Positions 1-6,649 of a DNA stretch of 39,578 bases are shown one piece after another. A program made the translations under genes and the position numbers. The notes beneath the pieces were generated by a model that saw nothing but the letters and a program-made list of their open reading frames with translations, was not told the DNA's origin and did not search any database. Numbering within the stretch: position 1 is the stretch's first letter; every line of letters begins with the position of its first letter. The DNA is taken from assembly GCA_029567505.1 (NCBI GenBank), contig JAKPXO010000257.1, positions 1-39,578 on the forward strand. The letters are read 5' to 3'. Origin of the DNA: Acidobacteriota bacterium (GTDB taxonomy: Bacteria > Acidobacteriota > Thermoanaerobaculia > UBA5066).

Positions 1-61
1 CGTCGTCATGGCGATCGTCGACTCCTGGGACGTCGGCGGCGACGTGAAGTACAGGAAGTGA
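1..61 (+). CDS. BMC pentameric shell protein (EutN/CcmL family), C-terminal end only
   Basis: Only the last 19 codons are inside the window; the gene enters from the left and stops with TGA at 59-61. The visible residues read VVMAIVDSWDVG followed by a short tail ending YRK. This resembles the last beta strand of EutN/CcmL pentamers, where 'VVGIVD' is typical and which also occurs in the intact paralogue at 2130-2414 (VVGIVDALHL). The next gene starts one base after this stop, so it belongs to the same operon. The assignment rests on a short stretch plus context, so it is moderately sure. Confidence 0.6.
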   Translation, partial: VVMAIVDSWDVGGDVKYRK

Positions 62-62
62 C

Positions 63-1511
63 GTGGCCGCGCGCCTGACCGACGCCGAGATCGAGGCGAT
101 CGCCCGACGCATCGTCTCGGACCTCGACGGCCAGCCCGCGGCCGCGTCGCCGGCCGGCGGCGCGGCCGCGGGGGACTCCGCCGCCCCGATGGGAATCCAC
201 CCCACCGTGAACGCCGCCGTCGAGGCGGCGCGGAAGGCCCAGCCCCGCTTCGTCGCTCTCCCGCTGCGCGTCCGCGCGAAGGTGATCGAGGCGATCCGCG
301 CCACGATGCGCGAGAACGGCGCGGCCCTCGCAAAAGCGGCATGGGAGGAGACCGGGCTCGGGCGGTACGAGGACAAGGTCGTCAAGAACGCCCTCGTCAC
401 CGAGCGGACGCCCGGCCTCGAGGACCTCTATCCGTCGGCGGTGACGGGCGACCACGGCCTCACGCTGATGGAGCCGGCGCCGTTCAGCGTCATCGGCGCG
501 CTCACGCCGTCCACGAACCCGACGTCGACGATCATCTGCAACGCGATCGGGATGCTCGCCGCCGGGAACGCCGTCGTCTTCTCGGTCCATCCGTCGGCGA
601 AGGAGTGCTCCATCCGGACGATCGCCCTCCTGAACAAGGCGATCGTCTCCGCGGGCGGTCCCCCCGACGTCGTCACGGGCGTCTCCGCGCCGTCGCTCGA
701 GTCGGCGCAGGAGGTAATGAAGCACCCCGGCATCCGCCTCCTCGTCGTCACGGGGGGCGGGGCGGTCGTGAAGGCCGCGATGGCCAGCGGCAAGCGGGCC
801 ATCTGCGCCGGGCCGGGGAACCCGCCCGTCGTCGTCGACGAGACGGCCGACCTCGCGAAGGCCGGCCGGGACATCGTCCTCGGCGGCTCGACCGACAACA
901 ACGTCATCTGCGTCGACGAGAAGGAGGTCCTCGTCGTCGCGAAGGTGGCCGACGAGCTGATCCGCGCGATGGTCGCCGCCGGCGCGGTGGTGATCGGGAA
1001 GGACCGGCTGAAGGAGCTCGAGAAGGCGATCTTCACGAAGATGGCCGGACCGCGCGAGCACGCCTGGGTCGACAAGGACCTCATCGGGAAGAACGCGAAC
1101 GTCATCCTCCGGAGAATGGGGATCTCGGCGCCCGATACCGTCCGGCAGATCGTCGTCGAGGTCGACGCGGACCACCCGCTCCTCTGGACCGAGCAGATGA
1201 TGCCGGTGATGCCGGTCTGCCGCGTCCCGAGCGTCGACGCGGCGATCGACCTCGCCGTCCCCGTCGAGGGGCGCAACCGGCACACCTTCGTCATGCACTC
1301 GCGGAACCTCGACGCCCTCTCGCGGATGGCGAAGGAGTGCGACGCCTCGATCTTCGTCAAGAACGGCCGGTCGCAGGCGGGCCTCGGCCTCGACGGCGAG
1401 GGCTTCTGCTCCTTCACGATCGCGAGCCCGACGGGCGAGGGGCTCACGTCGCCGCGCAGCTTCTCGCGCTGGCGCCGCTGCGTCCTCGTCGACAACTTCC
1501 GGATCACCTGA
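63..1511 (+). CDS. CoA-acylating aldehyde dehydrogenase of a microcompartment (EutE/PduP type)
   Basis: This 482-residue protein (GTG start) should oxidise an aldehyde to acyl-CoA with NAD+ and CoA inside a bacterial microcompartment. The ALDH core is clear: PSTNPTSTIICNAIG around residues 150-165, a glycine-rich TGGGAVVKAA segment, and DNNVICVDEKEV with the expected catalytic cysteine at residue 283, matching the DNN-x-x-C-x-x-EKEV pattern of EutE/PduP. Residues about 5-21 (LTDAEIEAIARRIVSDL) form an amphipathic helix followed by an Ala/Pro/Gly-rich linker (about 24-42), the usual layout of an N-terminal encapsulation peptide. Shell genes lie on both sides with gaps of only a few bases. The aldehyde cannot be read from this gene alone because the enzyme that would produce it is upstream of the window. 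Confidence 0.93.
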   Translation: MAARLTDAEIEAIARRIVSDLDGQPAAASPAGGAAAGDSAAPMGIHPTVNAAVEAARKAQPRFVALPLRVRAKVIEAIRATMRENGAALAKAAWEETGLGRYEDKVVKNALVTERTPGLEDLYPSAVTGDHGLTLMEPAPFSVIGALTPSTNPTSTIICNAIGMLAAGNAVVFSVHPSAKECSIRTIALLNKAIVSAGGPPDVVTGVSAPSLESAQEVMKHPGIRLLVVTGGGAVVKAAMASGKRAICAGPGNPPVVVDETADLAKAGRDIVLGGSTDNNVICVDEKEVLVVAKVADELIRAMVAAGAVVIGKDRLKELEKAIFTKMAGPREHAWVDKDLIGKNANVILRRMGISAPDTVRQIVVEVDADHPLLWTEQMMPVMPVCRVPSVDAAIDLAVPVEGRNRHTFVMHSRNLDALSRMAKECDASIFVKNGRSQAGLGLDGEGFCSFTIASPTGEGLTSPRSFSRWRRCVLVDNFRIT

Positions 1512-1518
1512 GCGTCCG

Positions 1519-2130
1519 ATGAAGCGCGCCGCCGCCCTCGCCGTCCTCGACTTCGCGGAAATCCCCGCGGGGCTCGACGCGACGGACGCGATGCTGAAGA
1601 AGGCCCCCGTCGCCTTCTTCCGCTCGGGGACGGTGACGGCCGGGCGCTACCTGACGCTGATCGGCGGGACGCCCGCCTCCGTCGAGGAGGCGCTCGCCGA
1701 GGGGCTCGCCCGCGCCGAGGGGCACCTCCTCGACCACCTCTACCTCGCCGACGTCCACCCGCGCCTCCTCGACGCCCTCGAGGGGCGCCGGGGCGAGGAC
1801 GGGACGGGCGCGCTCCTGATCCTTGAGACGGCGACGGCCTCCTCCGTCGTCCTCGCCTGCGAGCGGGCGCTCAAGGGAACGCTCGTCGACCTCGTCGAGG
1901 TGCGCCTATCGGACGCGGGCCTCGCGGGCAAGGGGCTCGCCCTCTTCCGCGGCGACCTCCACGAGCTGGAGGCGGCGGTCGAGATCGTGACGTCGGCCCT
2001 CCCGCCCGCCGCGGGCCTCTCGTACCGCGTCCTTGCGCGCCCCCACGACGCCTTCGCGCGCGAGGCCGCGCTCGGCACCGCGTTCGCGGCCAGCCGCTTC
2101 GTCGACCTCGGCGGCGAGGAGGCCTCGTAG
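1519..2130 (+). CDS. Tandem-domain BMC shell protein (BMC-T, trimer-forming)
   Basis: The 203-residue protein contains two BMC folds in a row. The first (about residues 4-95) has VLDFAEIPAGLDATDAMLKK, with the helix pattern of BMC proteins, followed by VAFFRSGTVTAGRYLTLIGG. The second (about 96-185) has LLILETATASSVVLACERAL and the VEVRLSDAGLAGKGLALFRG strand. Such proteins form pseudohexameric trimers in the shell facets and often carry a larger pore. ATG lies seven bases after the aldehyde dehydrogenase stop. Its stop TAG overlaps the GTG of the next shell gene by one base (TAGTG at 2128-2132), pointing to translational coupling. I cannot tell from sequence alone whether it is a single-layer or a stacking double-layer type. 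Confidence 0.88.
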   Translation: MKRAAALAVLDFAEIPAGLDATDAMLKKAPVAFFRSGTVTAGRYLTLIGGTPASVEEALAEGLARAEGHLLDHLYLADVHPRLLDALEGRRGEDGTGALLILETATASSVVLACERALKGTLVDLVEVRLSDAGLAGKGLALFRGDLHELEAAVEIVTSALPPAAGLSYRVLARPHDAFAREAALGTAFAASRFVDLGGEEAS

Positions 2131-2414
2131 TGCTCCTCGGGCGCGTCATCGGCCGCGTCGTGCCGTGCGTCGTGACGCCGGGCCTCGAGGGGGTCCCGAT
2201 GCTCCTCCTCCAGCCGCTCGGCAAGGACGGGGCGCCGAAAGGGAAGACCCTCGTCGCCGCCGACCCGACGCGGATGGCGGGGGAGGGCGAGCTCGTCGCC
2301 TACGAGGGGGGCCGCGAGGCGGCGCTCCTCCTCGAGCCGTGGTTCGTCCCGGTCGACCACGCCGTCGTCGGCATCGTCGACGCGCTCCACCTCCCGGGCA
2401 GGGAGAAAGCGTGA
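2130..2414 (+). CDS. BMC pentameric vertex protein (EutN/CcmL family), second copy
   Basis: A 94-residue protein, normal for BMC-P pentamers that cap the vertices of the shell. It begins LLGRVIGRVVPCVVTPGLEG, the typical N-terminal strand, continues with LLLQPLGKDG and a lysine/threonine-rich turn before LVAADP. It has the characteristic EGELVAYEGGREAALLL segment, with a glycine-rich loop after a basic/acidic strand, and ends with VDHAVVGIVDALHL. GTG start, one-base overlap with the BMC-T stop. The next pentamer gene starts at GTG 2411 inside this gene's final codons (GTGA), so the three shell genes are probably translated in a chain. Confidence 0.88.
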   Translation: MLLGRVIGRVVPCVVTPGLEGVPMLLLQPLGKDGAPKGKTLVAADPTRMAGEGELVAYEGGREAALLLEPWFVPVDHAVVGIVDALHLPGREKA

Positions 2415-2680
2415 TCACGGGGATCGTCATCGGCGAGATCACGGCGACGATCCGCCACCCCTTCTTCGAGGGGAAGAAGATGCTCGTCGTCGCGCGGACC
2501 GGCGCGGACGGCGCCGAGACGGGCGACTACGTCATCGCGATCGACGCCATTGGTGTCGGCCCCGGCGACCCGGTCCTCGTCCTCGACGAAGGGAACGGCG
2601 CCCGCCAGGTCGTCGGCTCCCCGACCGCCCCCGTCCGCTCCGTCGTCGTCGGCTTCCTCGATCGCGTCGACGTCGTCTGA
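2411..2680 (+). CDS. BMC pentameric vertex protein (EutN/CcmL family), third copy
   Basis: A small gene of 89 residues starting GTG in a GTGA overlap with the preceding stop. It begins VITGIVIGEITATIRHPFFE, has a strand MLVVARTGADG, then DYVIAIDAIGVGPGDPVLVLDEGNGARQ, where family members have 'a.D.vGaG.Ge.Vlv..Gs.aR', and ends SVVVGFLDRVDVV. This GxGD/LDEGNGAR segment is the most diagnostic BMC-P feature in the window. Clearly divergent from the copy just upstream, it probably fills a distinct position among the vertices. Together with the partial gene at the left edge this makes three pentamer paralogues in one operon. Confidence 0.9.
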   Translation: MITGIVIGEITATIRHPFFEGKKMLVVARTGADGAETGDYVIAIDAIGVGPGDPVLVLDEGNGARQVVGSPTAPVRSVVVGFLDRVDVV

Positions 2681-2681
2681 C

Positions 2682-3125
2682 GTGGACGCGCCGCCCCCCG
2701 CTCCGCCGCTCCTCCCGCCGCCCCCTCCGCCCCGGCCGGCTCCGCCCCCTGCCTTCGCCCTCCCCGTCGTCGAGCCCGCCTGCCTCCGTTGGCAGCGCGT
2801 CTACCTCGGCGCGATGGCGGCGATCTACCTCGCCTGCGTCGTCGGCGGCGCGCTCCTCCTCGTCTTCCGGCAGGAGGTCGCCGACTGGCCCCCGCGCGAC
2901 GAGCCGTGGGAGATCGTCCTGACGGGCGGCCTCCTCCTCGGCCTCGGCGCCTTCTTCCTCGCCCTCTACGTTGCCGGCTACTTCCTCCCGCGCCGGCCCT
3001 GGGCGTGGGTCGCGCACCTCGTCCTGATCGCCTTCGGCCTGACGAGCTGCTGCACGATGCCCGCCGCCATTCCCCTCCTCGTCGCCTTCCTCCGCCGCGA
3101 CACTCAGGCCTGGTTCGGCCGCTGA
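2682..3125 (+). CDS. Proline-rich small membrane protein, last gene of the BMC operon
   Basis: I do not recognise a family. The chosen GTG lies one base after the stop of the third pentamer gene, which is the operon spacing; an open frame continues upstream but only across the shell gene. The 147-residue product has a very proline-rich N-terminus (about residues 4-28, mostly P with A and L) and then three hydrophobic segments (about 42-62, 79-102 and 107-132) consistent with membrane helices. It ends in a short basic tail (FLRRDTQAWFGR). Paired cysteines occur in the third helix (SCCTM). Membrane proteins are unusual inside BMC operons. Its role could be unrelated to the shell, or it could anchor or transport for the organelle. 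Confidence 0.7.
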   Translation: MDAPPPAPPLLPPPPPPRPAPPPAFALPVVEPACLRWQRVYLGAMAAIYLACVVGGALLLVFRQEVADWPPRDEPWEIVLTGGLLLGLGAFFLALYVAGYFLPRRPWAWVAHLVLIAFGLTSCCTMPAAIPLLVAFLRRDTQAWFGR

Positions 3126-3178: not shown

Positions 3179-4111
3179 ATGCCGAGACCTCCCCGCCTCG
3201 ATTCGACCGGCACCGTCACGCACGTCGTCGCCCGCGGGAACGAGCGCCGGCCCCTCTTCCGCGACGACGCCGATCGCACGAAGTACCTCGAGCTCCTCGG
3301 TGAGGCGTGCGGTCGCTACGGCGCGAGGGCGTTCGCGTGGTGCCTCATGCCGAACCACGTCCACCTCGCGCTGCAGACGGGGAGCGCGCCGATCTCCCGC
3401 CTCGTCCACGACGTCCACTCGCGGTACGCGCAGTACTTCAACCGGCGCTGGGAGCGCTCCGGGCACCTCTTCCAGGGGCGCTTCCAGGGGATCGTCGTCG
3501 ACCGCGAGGCGTATCTCCTCGAGGTCGTCCGATACATCCACCGCAACCCGGTGAAGGCACGCCTCGTCGCGCGGCCCGAGGAGTTCCCCTGGTCGAGCCA
3601 CGGCGCCTACCTCTCGACGGGTCCCTCGTGGCTCGCCTCCGGGGAGGTCCTCGGTCTCCTCGCCGGGGGACGACCGAAGGCCCGCCGGCTCTTCCAGGAG
3701 TTCGTCACGGGGGCGTCGGCGGGGCGGTACGACCCCGACGGAGCCCGGTTCGGGGCGGTCGTCGGAGGGGAGGACTTCGTCCGGGCGGCGCTCGCGGGGG
3801 CGGGGCGGGAAGACCTCGTGAGGCGCACGCTCACGGTCGAAGCCGTCGTCAAGGCCGTCGCGGCGCACGAGGAGGTCTCCGTCGACGAGCTGACGGGGCC
3901 GTCCCGCCTCCGGAGCCTCTCCCGGGTCCGGAGCCTCTGCGCCCTTCTGGGCCGGGAGTACGGCGGGATCCCGTTCGCGAGGACCGCCCGCTTCTTCGGG
4001 CGCGACGCCTCGACGATCTCGCGCGACGTGGCGTTCCTGGAGCGCCGCCTCGCCGAAGACCCCGCGGAGGCGCGCCGGCTGGCGGAGCTGCGTCGGGTGC
4101 TCGCGGAGTGA
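3179..4111 (+). CDS. Y1 (HUH) REP-associated transposase with C-terminal DnaA-like DNA-binding domain
   Basis: This 310-residue protein is expected to nick and rejoin single-stranded DNA at REP-like repeats. The N-terminal part (1-165) is a Y1 transposase domain: HVVARGNERRPLF, the metal-binding HUH motif in MPNHVHLALQ (H60, H62), RSGHLFQGRF, and RYIHRNPVKARLV. The tyrosine in the latter (Y119) is at the right distance to be the catalytic nucleophile. Residues about 218-305 resemble the DnaA C-terminal duplex-binding domain seen in many RAYTs: VVKAVAAHEEVSVDELTG, then RVRSLCALLGREYGG and the helix-turn-helix DASTISRDVAFLERRL. A GAGGT Shine-Dalgarno (3174-3178) lies directly against the ATG. 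It looks intact, with no frameshift or lost catalytic residue. Confidence 0.92.
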   Translation: MPRPPRLDSTGTVTHVVARGNERRPLFRDDADRTKYLELLGEACGRYGARAFAWCLMPNHVHLALQTGSAPISRLVHDVHSRYAQYFNRRWERSGHLFQGRFQGIVVDREAYLLEVVRYIHRNPVKARLVARPEEFPWSSHGAYLSTGPSWLASGEVLGLLAGGRPKARRLFQEFVTGASAGRYDPDGARFGAVVGGEDFVRAALAGAGREDLVRRTLTVEAVVKAVAAHEEVSVDELTGPSRLRSLSRVRSLCALLGREYGGIPFARTARFFGRDASTISRDVAFLERRLAEDPAEARRLAELRRVLAE

Positions 4112-4981: not shown

Positions 4982-6649
4982 TCAGGTGGAGAAGCGGGCG
5001 AGGCGGACGGCCTTCTCGACGACCGACGCGAGGAGGCGTGGAACCCCCGGGGAATCGGGCGCGGCCATCGCCTCGGCCACCTCGAGCGCCATGCGCGGCT
5101 TCCCGTGCGCCTTCAGCGCGCGGTCGATGATCGCGGTCGTGGGGATGCGCCGGCGGCCGAAGAGCGACGGGAAGACGCCGGCACGCTGGGCGGCGGCCCG
5201 GTAGACGCCGGCGTAGCCGGCCCCCCAGAGGTGGTGCTCGACGTCCCGCTCGCGGAAGCCGGTGACACGCTCGCGGTCGGGCTCTCCCTGGAGGAAGGAG
5301 CGGGCGGCCCGGACGTAGTGCCGTCCGGCGTCGTCCCCGTCGGCGAGGAGGTGCCACTCGATCCCGAGGCCGCGCGCCATCTTCACGAGCGGCGCGATGC
5401 CGCACTGGGCGAACTCGACGCACCGGACCCCCTCGGCGGGGAGGTCGTGCCCGATGAGCCGGGCGATCTCCGGGAGGAGCCACGACTCGGTCTCCCCCTC
5501 GACGAGGAGCCAGCAGCGGGCGAAGACCGAGGAGGCCCTGTTGACGCGGATGTGGTAGCCGACGCGCCGCATCTCGTCGACCGTCAGTGCCCCCTCGGCG
5601 AGGCCGTGGACGGCCACTCCGCCCCCGTTCCGGACGAGGCGGCGAATGGCGTGGAGGGGGACCGAGGCGAGCAGATCGCCCGAGTTCGTCGTCAGGATCC
5701 TCTGCCCGGCGACGCGGTCGATCAGGCCGAAGACGCGCGCAGCCAGGATCGGGTGGAGATGGGCCTCCGCTTCCTCGATCAGGACGAGCGGCTCGGCACC
5801 CGCCTCGACGGGGGAGCCGTTCTCGGCGTCGAGGACGGCCCCGAGGAGCATCAGGAGCGCGAGGCTCTGCATGCCCGTCCCCTCGCGCGACTCGGCCCGG
5901 AGAGGATCGGTGGCGCCGAGGAGGACCGGGGTCTCCGCGAGGATCTCGGTCGTGCGTCCGCCCGGGGCGCGGGGCGGGAGGCGAAGGCGCTCGACCCAGC
6001 GCTCCGCGAGAGCGCGGGCGGCCGCGATCGGCTCCCGGAGCTCTTCGGGATGGGGCCGCCAGGAGCCCGAGAACTTCCGGTAGGCGCTCTCGACCGTCCG
6101 ACGGAGCTTCCGGGTGACCTCGCCCTCGCCAGCTTCCCCGGGCGCTGGCGGGACGACGGCCGGCGCGGGCGCCTCCGGGCCGGTCGCCGGGGTCTCCAGG
6201 TCGATCTCCACGGGCGCGACTCGCGGGGGCCGATTGAAGCGGACGCGCAGGACCGGATGCCGGCGGCGGAACGCCTCGACGGCCTCCTCGTCTCCCGGGC
6301 TCAGGTCGCGTCCGTCGCGGTCCGTGAGCCGGGACGTGGCGACGGCGGGGGAGCCGTCGGGCGTCCGTGAGGCCGTGAGCTCGGCGACGGTCTCGCGCCC
6401 GCCCTCCCCGGCGAACGTGAACCGCATCGAGATCCGCTCGACCGGAGCCGCCGTCCCGACCGGGAGGTGGAAGTCGAGAGGTGAGAAGGCGGGCCGCGCG
6501 CCGCGGTGACCGAACGCGAGCTCGAGCGCATCGAGGACGCTCGTCTTGCCGCAGGAGTTCTCTCCGATCAGCGCGGTCGTGTCGTCCAGGTCCAGCGTCA
6601 TCCGCCGGATCCCACGGAAGCCCTCGATCTCGATGCGTCTGAGCGGCAC
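4982..6649 (-). CDS. OLD-family ATPase/TOPRIM nuclease (YbjD-like)
   Basis: A 555-residue protein with an N-terminal SMC/RecF-like ATPase and a C-terminal TOPRIM nuclease domain, the architecture of OLD (overcoming lysogenization defect) nucleases. It opens LRRIEIEGFRGIRRMTLDL, followed by the Walker A loop GENSCGKT (residues 29-36). The ABC-type second half includes PLVLIEEAEAHLHP (Walker B region) and ILTTNSGDLL. The TOPRIM part begins at about residue 380 with LLVEGETESWLLP (catalytic glutamate) and has LLADGDDAGRHY (Asp pair) at about 433-444. GTG start. No UvrD-like helicase (the Gabija partner) is adjacent, so it is a stand-alone class 1 type. It follows a GNAT gene by 59 bases. A role in DNA repair or phage resistance is known for relatives, not shown here. 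Confidence 0.87.
   Translation of the reverse strand: MPLRRIEIEGFRGIRRMTLDLDDTTALIGENSCGKTSVLDALELAFGHRGARPAFSPLDFHLPVGTAAPVERISMRFTFAGEGGRETVAELTASRTPDGSPAVATSRLTDRDGRDLSPGDEEAVEAFRRRHPVLRVRFNRPPRVAPVEIDLETPATGPEAPAPAVVPPAPGEAGEGEVTRKLRRTVESAYRKFSGSWRPHPEELREPIAAARALAERWVERLRLPPRAPGGRTTEILAETPVLLGATDPLRAESREGTGMQSLALLMLLGAVLDAENGSPVEAGAEPLVLIEEAEAHLHPILAARVFGLIDRVAGQRILTTNSGDLLASVPLHAIRRLVRNGGGVAVHGLAEGALTVDEMRRVGYHIRVNRASSVFARCWLLVEGETESWLLPEIARLIGHDLPAEGVRCVEFAQCGIAPLVKMARGLGIEWHLLADGDDAGRHYVRAARSFLQGEPDRERVTGFRERDVEHHLWGAGYAGVYRAAAQRAGVFPSLFGRRRIPTTAIIDRALKAHGKPRMALEVAEAMAAPDSPGVPRLLASVVEKAVRLARFST

What the first reader, a model, noticed from the sequence alone, without database searches (positions are those of the whole stretch)
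1..2680. Microcompartment operon with three pentamer paralogues, a tandem shell protein and an encapsulated CoA-acylating aldehyde dehydrogenase
The sequence shows an EutE/PduP-type enzyme with an N-terminal amphipathic helix and linker, one BMC-T and three different EutN/CcmL proteins. Three pentamer paralogues are known from several metabolosome classes (for example those of Haliangium and of Planctomycetes). The signature enzyme is out of view, so the substrate and locus type are undetermined.
Basis: partly seen in the sequence, partly recalled or inferred. Interest (0 to 1): 0.6.

Follow-up and report, generated by a model that had tools for sequence, protein, structure and literature searches.

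The report
Deoxyribose-phosphate microcompartment operon cut by contig
This is the downstream half of a bacterial protein organelle of a known type (SPU) that probably breaks down the sugar of DNA; the missing front half, including a fused two-enzyme protein with its packaging tag apparently in the middle, lies on another contig of the same genome.

Summary
Window 63-2680 encodes an intact EutE-type CoA-acylating aldehyde dehydrogenase with an N-terminal encapsulation helix, a tandem (PduT-like) BMC-T and two complete EutN/CcmL pentamers; bases 2-61 are the tail of a third. The window starts at a contig end, inside the operon.

The unknown signature enzyme is now found. Contig C281 of the same assembly ends inside a gene fusing an RpiB-like isomerase to deoxyribose-5-phosphate aldolase (DERA). 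Synteny puts it about 1.48 kb upstream. Fifteen relatives carry the whole operon: RpiB-DERA (fused in 14), CcmP/HO-5816-like BMC-T, BMC-H, EutN1, EutE, PduT-like BMC-T, EutN2, EutN3. This is the sugar-phosphate-utilising (SPU) metabolosome described in 2014 and 2021: a new member of a known kind.

Two details I found in no paper searched. (1) A helix matching the EutE packaging peptide sits between the two fused enzymes; unfused DERAs carry one at the N-terminus. (2) All 28 DERA-linked RpiB-like domains examined have Asp for the catalytic Cys (DGAGIG for CGTGIG), while the genome keeps a separate canonical RpiB. The function of that domain is therefore open. All functional claims rest on sequence; nothing was tested biochemically.

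The parts
2..61 (+). C-terminal tail (19 aa + stop) of EutN1, first of three BMC-P pentamer paralogues; the rest is missing from the assembly
   Evidence: Frame 2 reads VVMAIVDSWDVGGDVKYRK*; 95% identical to residues 77-95 of EutN1 of a congener
63..1511 (+). EutE-type CoA-acylating acetaldehyde dehydrogenase (pfam00171), 482 aa, with N-terminal encapsulation peptide
   Evidence: Pfam Aldedh 7.3e-33; PRK15398 625 bits, cut-off 403; closest solved relative 5jfl
75..125 (+). Encapsulation-peptide helix LTDAEIEAIARRIVSDL of EutE, followed by an Ala/Gly/Pro-rich linker
   Evidence: Conserved at the EutE N-terminus in relatives; profile matches the interdomain helix of the RpiB-DERA fusion
1519..2130 (+). 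Tandem BMC-T shell protein, PduT-like, 203 aa; Thr at the position of the PduT Fe-S cysteine
   Evidence: Two PF00936 domains; best solved relatives are PduT entries
2130..2414 (+). EutN2, BMC-P pentamer paralogue, 94 aa
   Evidence: PF03319 1.3e-17
2411..2680 (+). EutN3, BMC-P pentamer paralogue, 89 aa; last shell gene of the operon
   Evidence: PF03319 2.5e-20; EutN_CcmL entries in PDB including an HO shell pentamer

Best explanation
The window holds the 3' half of an SPU metabolosome operon. Inferred mechanism: 2-deoxyribose-5-phosphate (from DNA or deoxynucleosides) enters a shell made of BMC-H, two kinds of BMC-T and three pentamers. The DERA half of the RpiB-DERA fusion cleaves it to glyceraldehyde-3-phosphate, which leaves to glycolysis, and acetaldehyde, which is held inside and oxidised by the EP-tagged EutE to acetyl-CoA. 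The RpiB-like half most likely acts on a companion sugar phosphate or on the substrate's ring form; which one is unknown. Shown by sequence: gene content, order, conservation, domain identity and EP-like helices. Inferred: substrate, compartment assembly, cargo loading, flux.
For: Own contig C281 ends in an RpiB-DERA fusion 94% identical to the congener's over 337 residues; its end and the window start map to congener L036 at 2121 and 3602, leaving a gap of 1480 bp. Complete operon, with the later genes in fixed order, in 15 relatives. DeoC equivalog 290 bits, cut-off 117. AldDh of EutE type. SPU is defined by pfam01791 + pfam02502 with an AldDh (PMC8217296; PMC4207490). Nucleoside genes: thymidine phosphorylase beside a deaminase-family gene in the own genome, and upp, hpt and that deaminase family just upstream of the fusion in L028.
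Against: The 1480 bp between the contigs (C-terminal part of DERA, first BMC-T, BMC-H, most of EutN1) is not in this assembly, so adjacency is by synteny. No PduL, no DeoB, and no alcohol dehydrogenase was seen among the locus genes, so cofactor recycling and the route to deoxyribose-5-phosphate are not explained. The RpiB-like domain lacks the canonical catalytic Cys.
Confidence: 0.93

Rival explanations
1. An HO-type (Haliangium) or other metabolosome of unknown substrate whose similarity to SPU is only in the shell; the DERA fusion would be unrelated.
For: BMC-T1 is HO-5816-like; BMC-P triplet is shared with HO.
Against: RpiB-DERA is the first gene of the same operon in 15 relatives, with the same following gene order, and it carries an EP-like helix matching the EutE EP.
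Confidence: 0.04
2. The organelle processes another aldehyde (e.g. propionaldehyde or lactaldehyde, as in PDU, GRM or PVM types) and DERA is a minor passenger.
For: AldDhs of BMCs are promiscuous (general knowledge); the EutE/PduP family matches both uses.
Against: No diol dehydratase, glycyl radical enzyme or class II aldolase in any complete locus read; DERA is the only aldehyde-producing enzyme there.
Confidence: 0.03
3. On the RpiB half (a sub-question, compatible with the best explanation): it is an ordinary ribose-5-phosphate isomerase with Asp doing the work of Cys, so the organelle handles both RNA- and DNA-derived pentose phosphates.
For: Fold and phosphate-binding residues kept; M. 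tuberculosis RpiB uses a carboxylate (Glu75) as base, though at another position (PMC4783025).
Against: Catalytic Cys replaced by Asp, and Thr two residues on by Ala or Ser, in 28 of 28; C69S and C69A mutants of trypanosomatid RpiB are dead; score below the rpiB equivalog cut-off (119.8 against 138.65) while a second, canonical RpiB sits elsewhere in the genome (171.7).
Confidence: 0.45

Closest known systems
SPU (sugar phosphate utilisation) metabolosome, Axen et al. 2014 and Sutter et al. 2021
   Same: DeoC-type aldolase (pfam01791), RpiB-type isomerase (pfam02502), AldDh, BMC-H/T/P shell; an aldolase-isomerase fusion is already noted in Marinimicrobia SPU loci that also lack PduL.
   Different: Here in Acidobacteriota related to Thermoanaerobaculia; EP-like helix between the fused domains; Cys to Asp in the RpiB-like domain; no PduL in the genome. 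Subtype SPU1-7 could not be assigned (supplement not available).
HO metabolosome of Haliangium ochraceum
   Same: BMC-P triplet, CcmP-like BMC-T close to HO-5816, tandem BMC-T.
   Different: HO loci have no obvious signature enzyme in the main locus; here the RpiB-DERA fusion heads the operon.
EUT1 metabolosome
   Same: CoA-acylating acetaldehyde dehydrogenase of EutE type.
   Different: Acetaldehyde from DERA, not ethanolamine ammonia-lyase; no EutBC genes among the locus genes read.

Membership tests
SPU metabolosome | DeoC-type pfam01791 aldolase in the locus | tested here: met
   Own C281 fragment (PF01791 42.7 bits, truncated by the contig end); full length in congener L026 (deoC 290 bits). 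Linkage to the window is by synteny.
SPU metabolosome | RpiB-type pfam02502 isomerase in the locus | tested here: met
   PF02502 159.6 bits in own C281; active-site Cys replaced by Asp.
SPU metabolosome | pfam00171 AldDh | tested here: met
   Window 63-1511.
SPU metabolosome | BMC-H, BMC-T and BMC-P shell genes | tested here: met
   BMC-T2 and BMC-P in the window; BMC-H and BMC-T1 only in relatives, because that stretch is not assembled here.
SPU metabolosome | Subtype by shell and AldDh phylogeny (SPU1-7) | not testable with these tools
   Catalogue HMMs and Supplementary Data not held.
SPU metabolosome | Catabolism of deoxyribose phosphate in vivo | not testable with these tools
   Needs biochemistry or growth assays.
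Canonical RpiB (EC 5.3.1.6) | Catalytic base Cys in CGTG motif and rpiB equivalog score | tested here: not met
   DGAGIG in place of CGTGIG; 119.8 bits against cut-off 138.65.
PduT Fe-S shell protein | Cys38 cluster ligand | tested here: not met
   Thr in the window at the position aligned with PduT residue 38 (the PDB chains carry Ser there; that wild type is Cys is own knowledge).
HO metabolosome | Main locus without a sugar-processing signature enzyme | tested here: not met
   RpiB-DERA heads the operon in 15 relatives.

The most novel reading that the evidence does not exclude
The 'RpiB' of SPU organelles is not a ribose-5-phosphate isomerase but a distinct Cys-to-Asp enzyme serving DERA (for example opening the furanose ring of deoxyribose-5-phosphate, or isomerising the triose product), and the fusion is loaded through an encapsulation peptide that works from between two domains instead of from a terminus.
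Probability: 0.3. Interest if true: 0.6.

Novelty: new member of a known kind. Interest (0 to 1): 0.4.

Why it matters
SPU is one of the most widespread organelle types in the 2021 catalogue, and no biochemical study of it turned up in the papers searched. Why it carries an RpiB-like enzyme has no clear answer, because deoxyribose-5-phosphate has no 2-hydroxyl to isomerise (own reasoning). The motif difference makes that question directly testable with one purified protein. An internal packaging peptide, if real, would relax the rule that encapsulation peptides sit at protein ends.

Tried and rejected
DeoC hit on own C428: FbaB-like class I aldolase by sequence, no fusion, and tblastn of all operon proteins finds nothing there. 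A BMC-H elsewhere in the own assembly: none. PduL: none. DeoB: none. Single-pair EP comparison with shuffles was underpowered in Ala-rich linkers; a profile of nine EutE EPs was used instead. In-frame TGA between RpiB and DERA in G068, G080 and G103 looked like recoding, but reading it shows two separate genes, each with its own N-terminal EP-like helix. One fusion event against several: the DERA tree cannot decide (fused label needs 2 changes, 1 not excluded). AlphaFold model of the fusion was of moderate quality (mean pLDDT 72, four sequences); used only for the isolated interdomain helix (157-173). No Pfam family for the Cys-rich linker of the other fused clade.

Full report
Observation. 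The window is contig C364 of a 532-contig, 96% complete assembly and starts at its first base. Four complete genes run left to right, closely packed: EutE-type aldehyde dehydrogenase (63-1511), tandem BMC-T (1519-2130), and two EutN/CcmL proteins (2130-2414, 2411-2680), all above Pfam cut-offs. Bases 2-61 are the tail of a third EutN. The own assembly has no further BMC or EutN gene.

What is missing and where it is. The same BMC-T occurs in 17 of 41 related genomes, own included; named relatives are Acidobacteriota MAGs, one labelled Thermoanaerobaculia. Annotating their loci gives a fixed order: RpiB-DERA, BMC-T1, BMC-H, EutN1, EutE, BMC-T2, EutN2, EutN3. Fifteen are complete; in one (L047) RpiB and DERA are separate genes, and four carry a second copy of BMC-T1. 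Searching the own genome with the congener's upstream DNA found contig C281, whose end is 94% identical and stops inside the DERA domain. By synteny 1480 bp are missing between C281 and the window. An earlier DeoC hit on C428 was a different aldolase and was discarded.

Identity of the parts. The fusion scores as deoC (290 bits, cut-off 117) plus an RpiB/LacAB-family domain. BMC-T1 of the congener is close to CcmP and HO-5816. BMC-T2 is PduT-like but has Thr where PduT carries its cluster ligand. The EutE protein is closest to solved CoA-acylating AldDhs of the EutE/PduP kind (kind by own knowledge).

Type. Axen et al. 2014 (PMC4207490) named SPU loci for a DeoC aldolase, an RpiB isomerase and an AldDh, proposed DNA-sugar catabolism, and noted an aldolase-isomerase fusion in Marinimicrobia. 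Sutter et al. 2021 (PMC8217296) found over 280 SPU loci in 26 phyla and seven subtypes. The present locus meets these features. The own genome also has thymidine phosphorylase beside a deaminase-family gene, and in L028 uracil and hypoxanthine phosphoribosyltransferases and that deaminase family lie just upstream of the fusion, which fits nucleoside catabolism. PduL is absent; a Pta of the E. coli kind is encoded elsewhere; DeoB is absent.

Interdomain encapsulation peptide. Between RpiB and DERA lies a helix such as LSAEDIERIAAKVKEML. A profile built from nine EutE encapsulation peptides finds this helix as its best match in each of the fourteen linkers tested; z is 1.9 to 4.2 against shuffles of the same linker, and 17 of 300 shuffles reach it in the weakest case. 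In the twelve short-linker fusions scanned over their whole length it is also the best match in the whole protein. It is not the best whole-protein match in three of the four Cys-linker fusions. The model shows it as a lone helix inside a low-confidence stretch. Most unfused DERAs read in the phylum carry a similar helix at their N-terminus, so the internal helix is most simply the old N-terminal tag caught by gene fusion. A second fused clade and many unfused DERAs also have a Cys-rich stretch after the helix, without Pfam match. Whether fusion happened once is undecided.

RpiB-like domain. Aligned to solved RpiBs, the catalytic Cys of CGTGIG is Asp and the Thr is Ala. All 28 distinct domains read from fused or neighbouring-gene arrangements have DG[A/S]GIGS, while the histidine in the EHN motif and the C-terminal RHxxR are kept; the own genome's second RpiB has CGTGIG. 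Cys69 to Ser or Ala abolishes activity in trypanosomatid RpiB (PMC4783025). The domain is therefore a distinct subfamily; Asp may replace Cys as base, or the reaction may differ.

Verdict. Ordinary in type, correctly spotted, now completed: an SPU metabolosome split by the assembly, with two testable details that I did not find in the papers searched. Supplements of those papers could not be read, so prior mention cannot be excluded.

Noticed in passing
window 3179-4111 (+): IS200-like (Y1_Tnp) protein with a C-terminal DnaA-type helix-turn-helix, i.e. a REP-associated transposase-like gene, just downstream of the operon; also in congener L025.
   Followed up: partly
window 4982-6649 (-): OLD-like ATPase with TOPRIM domain (DUF2813/AAA_15), conserved near the locus in congener L026 and L027.
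   Followed up: no
L058:9968-10201 (own C281), L036:723-956, L027:5550-5783: Small exported CASCH (haem c motif) protein directly upstream of the fusion in own C281 and two close relatives.
   Followed up: partly
L045, L046, L048, L049 and many unfused DERAs: Cys-rich segment (e.g. CPAGGHCVTRCPDTVRSMIACVGPGC) between the EP helix and DERA, possibly metal-binding, no Pfam match. In L045, L046 and L049 the BMC-T2 has His-Cys near the PduT cluster position.
   Followed up: partly
L069, L070, L071: RpiB and DERA as adjacent genes in one frame separated by a TGA; each has its own EP-like N-terminus: a plausible pre-fusion arrangement.
   Followed up: partly
window 2681-3125 (+): Proline-rich small membrane-protein-like reading frame right after EutN3. 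The Pfam scan and conservation check used the neighbouring frame, so neither tested it.
   Followed up: no
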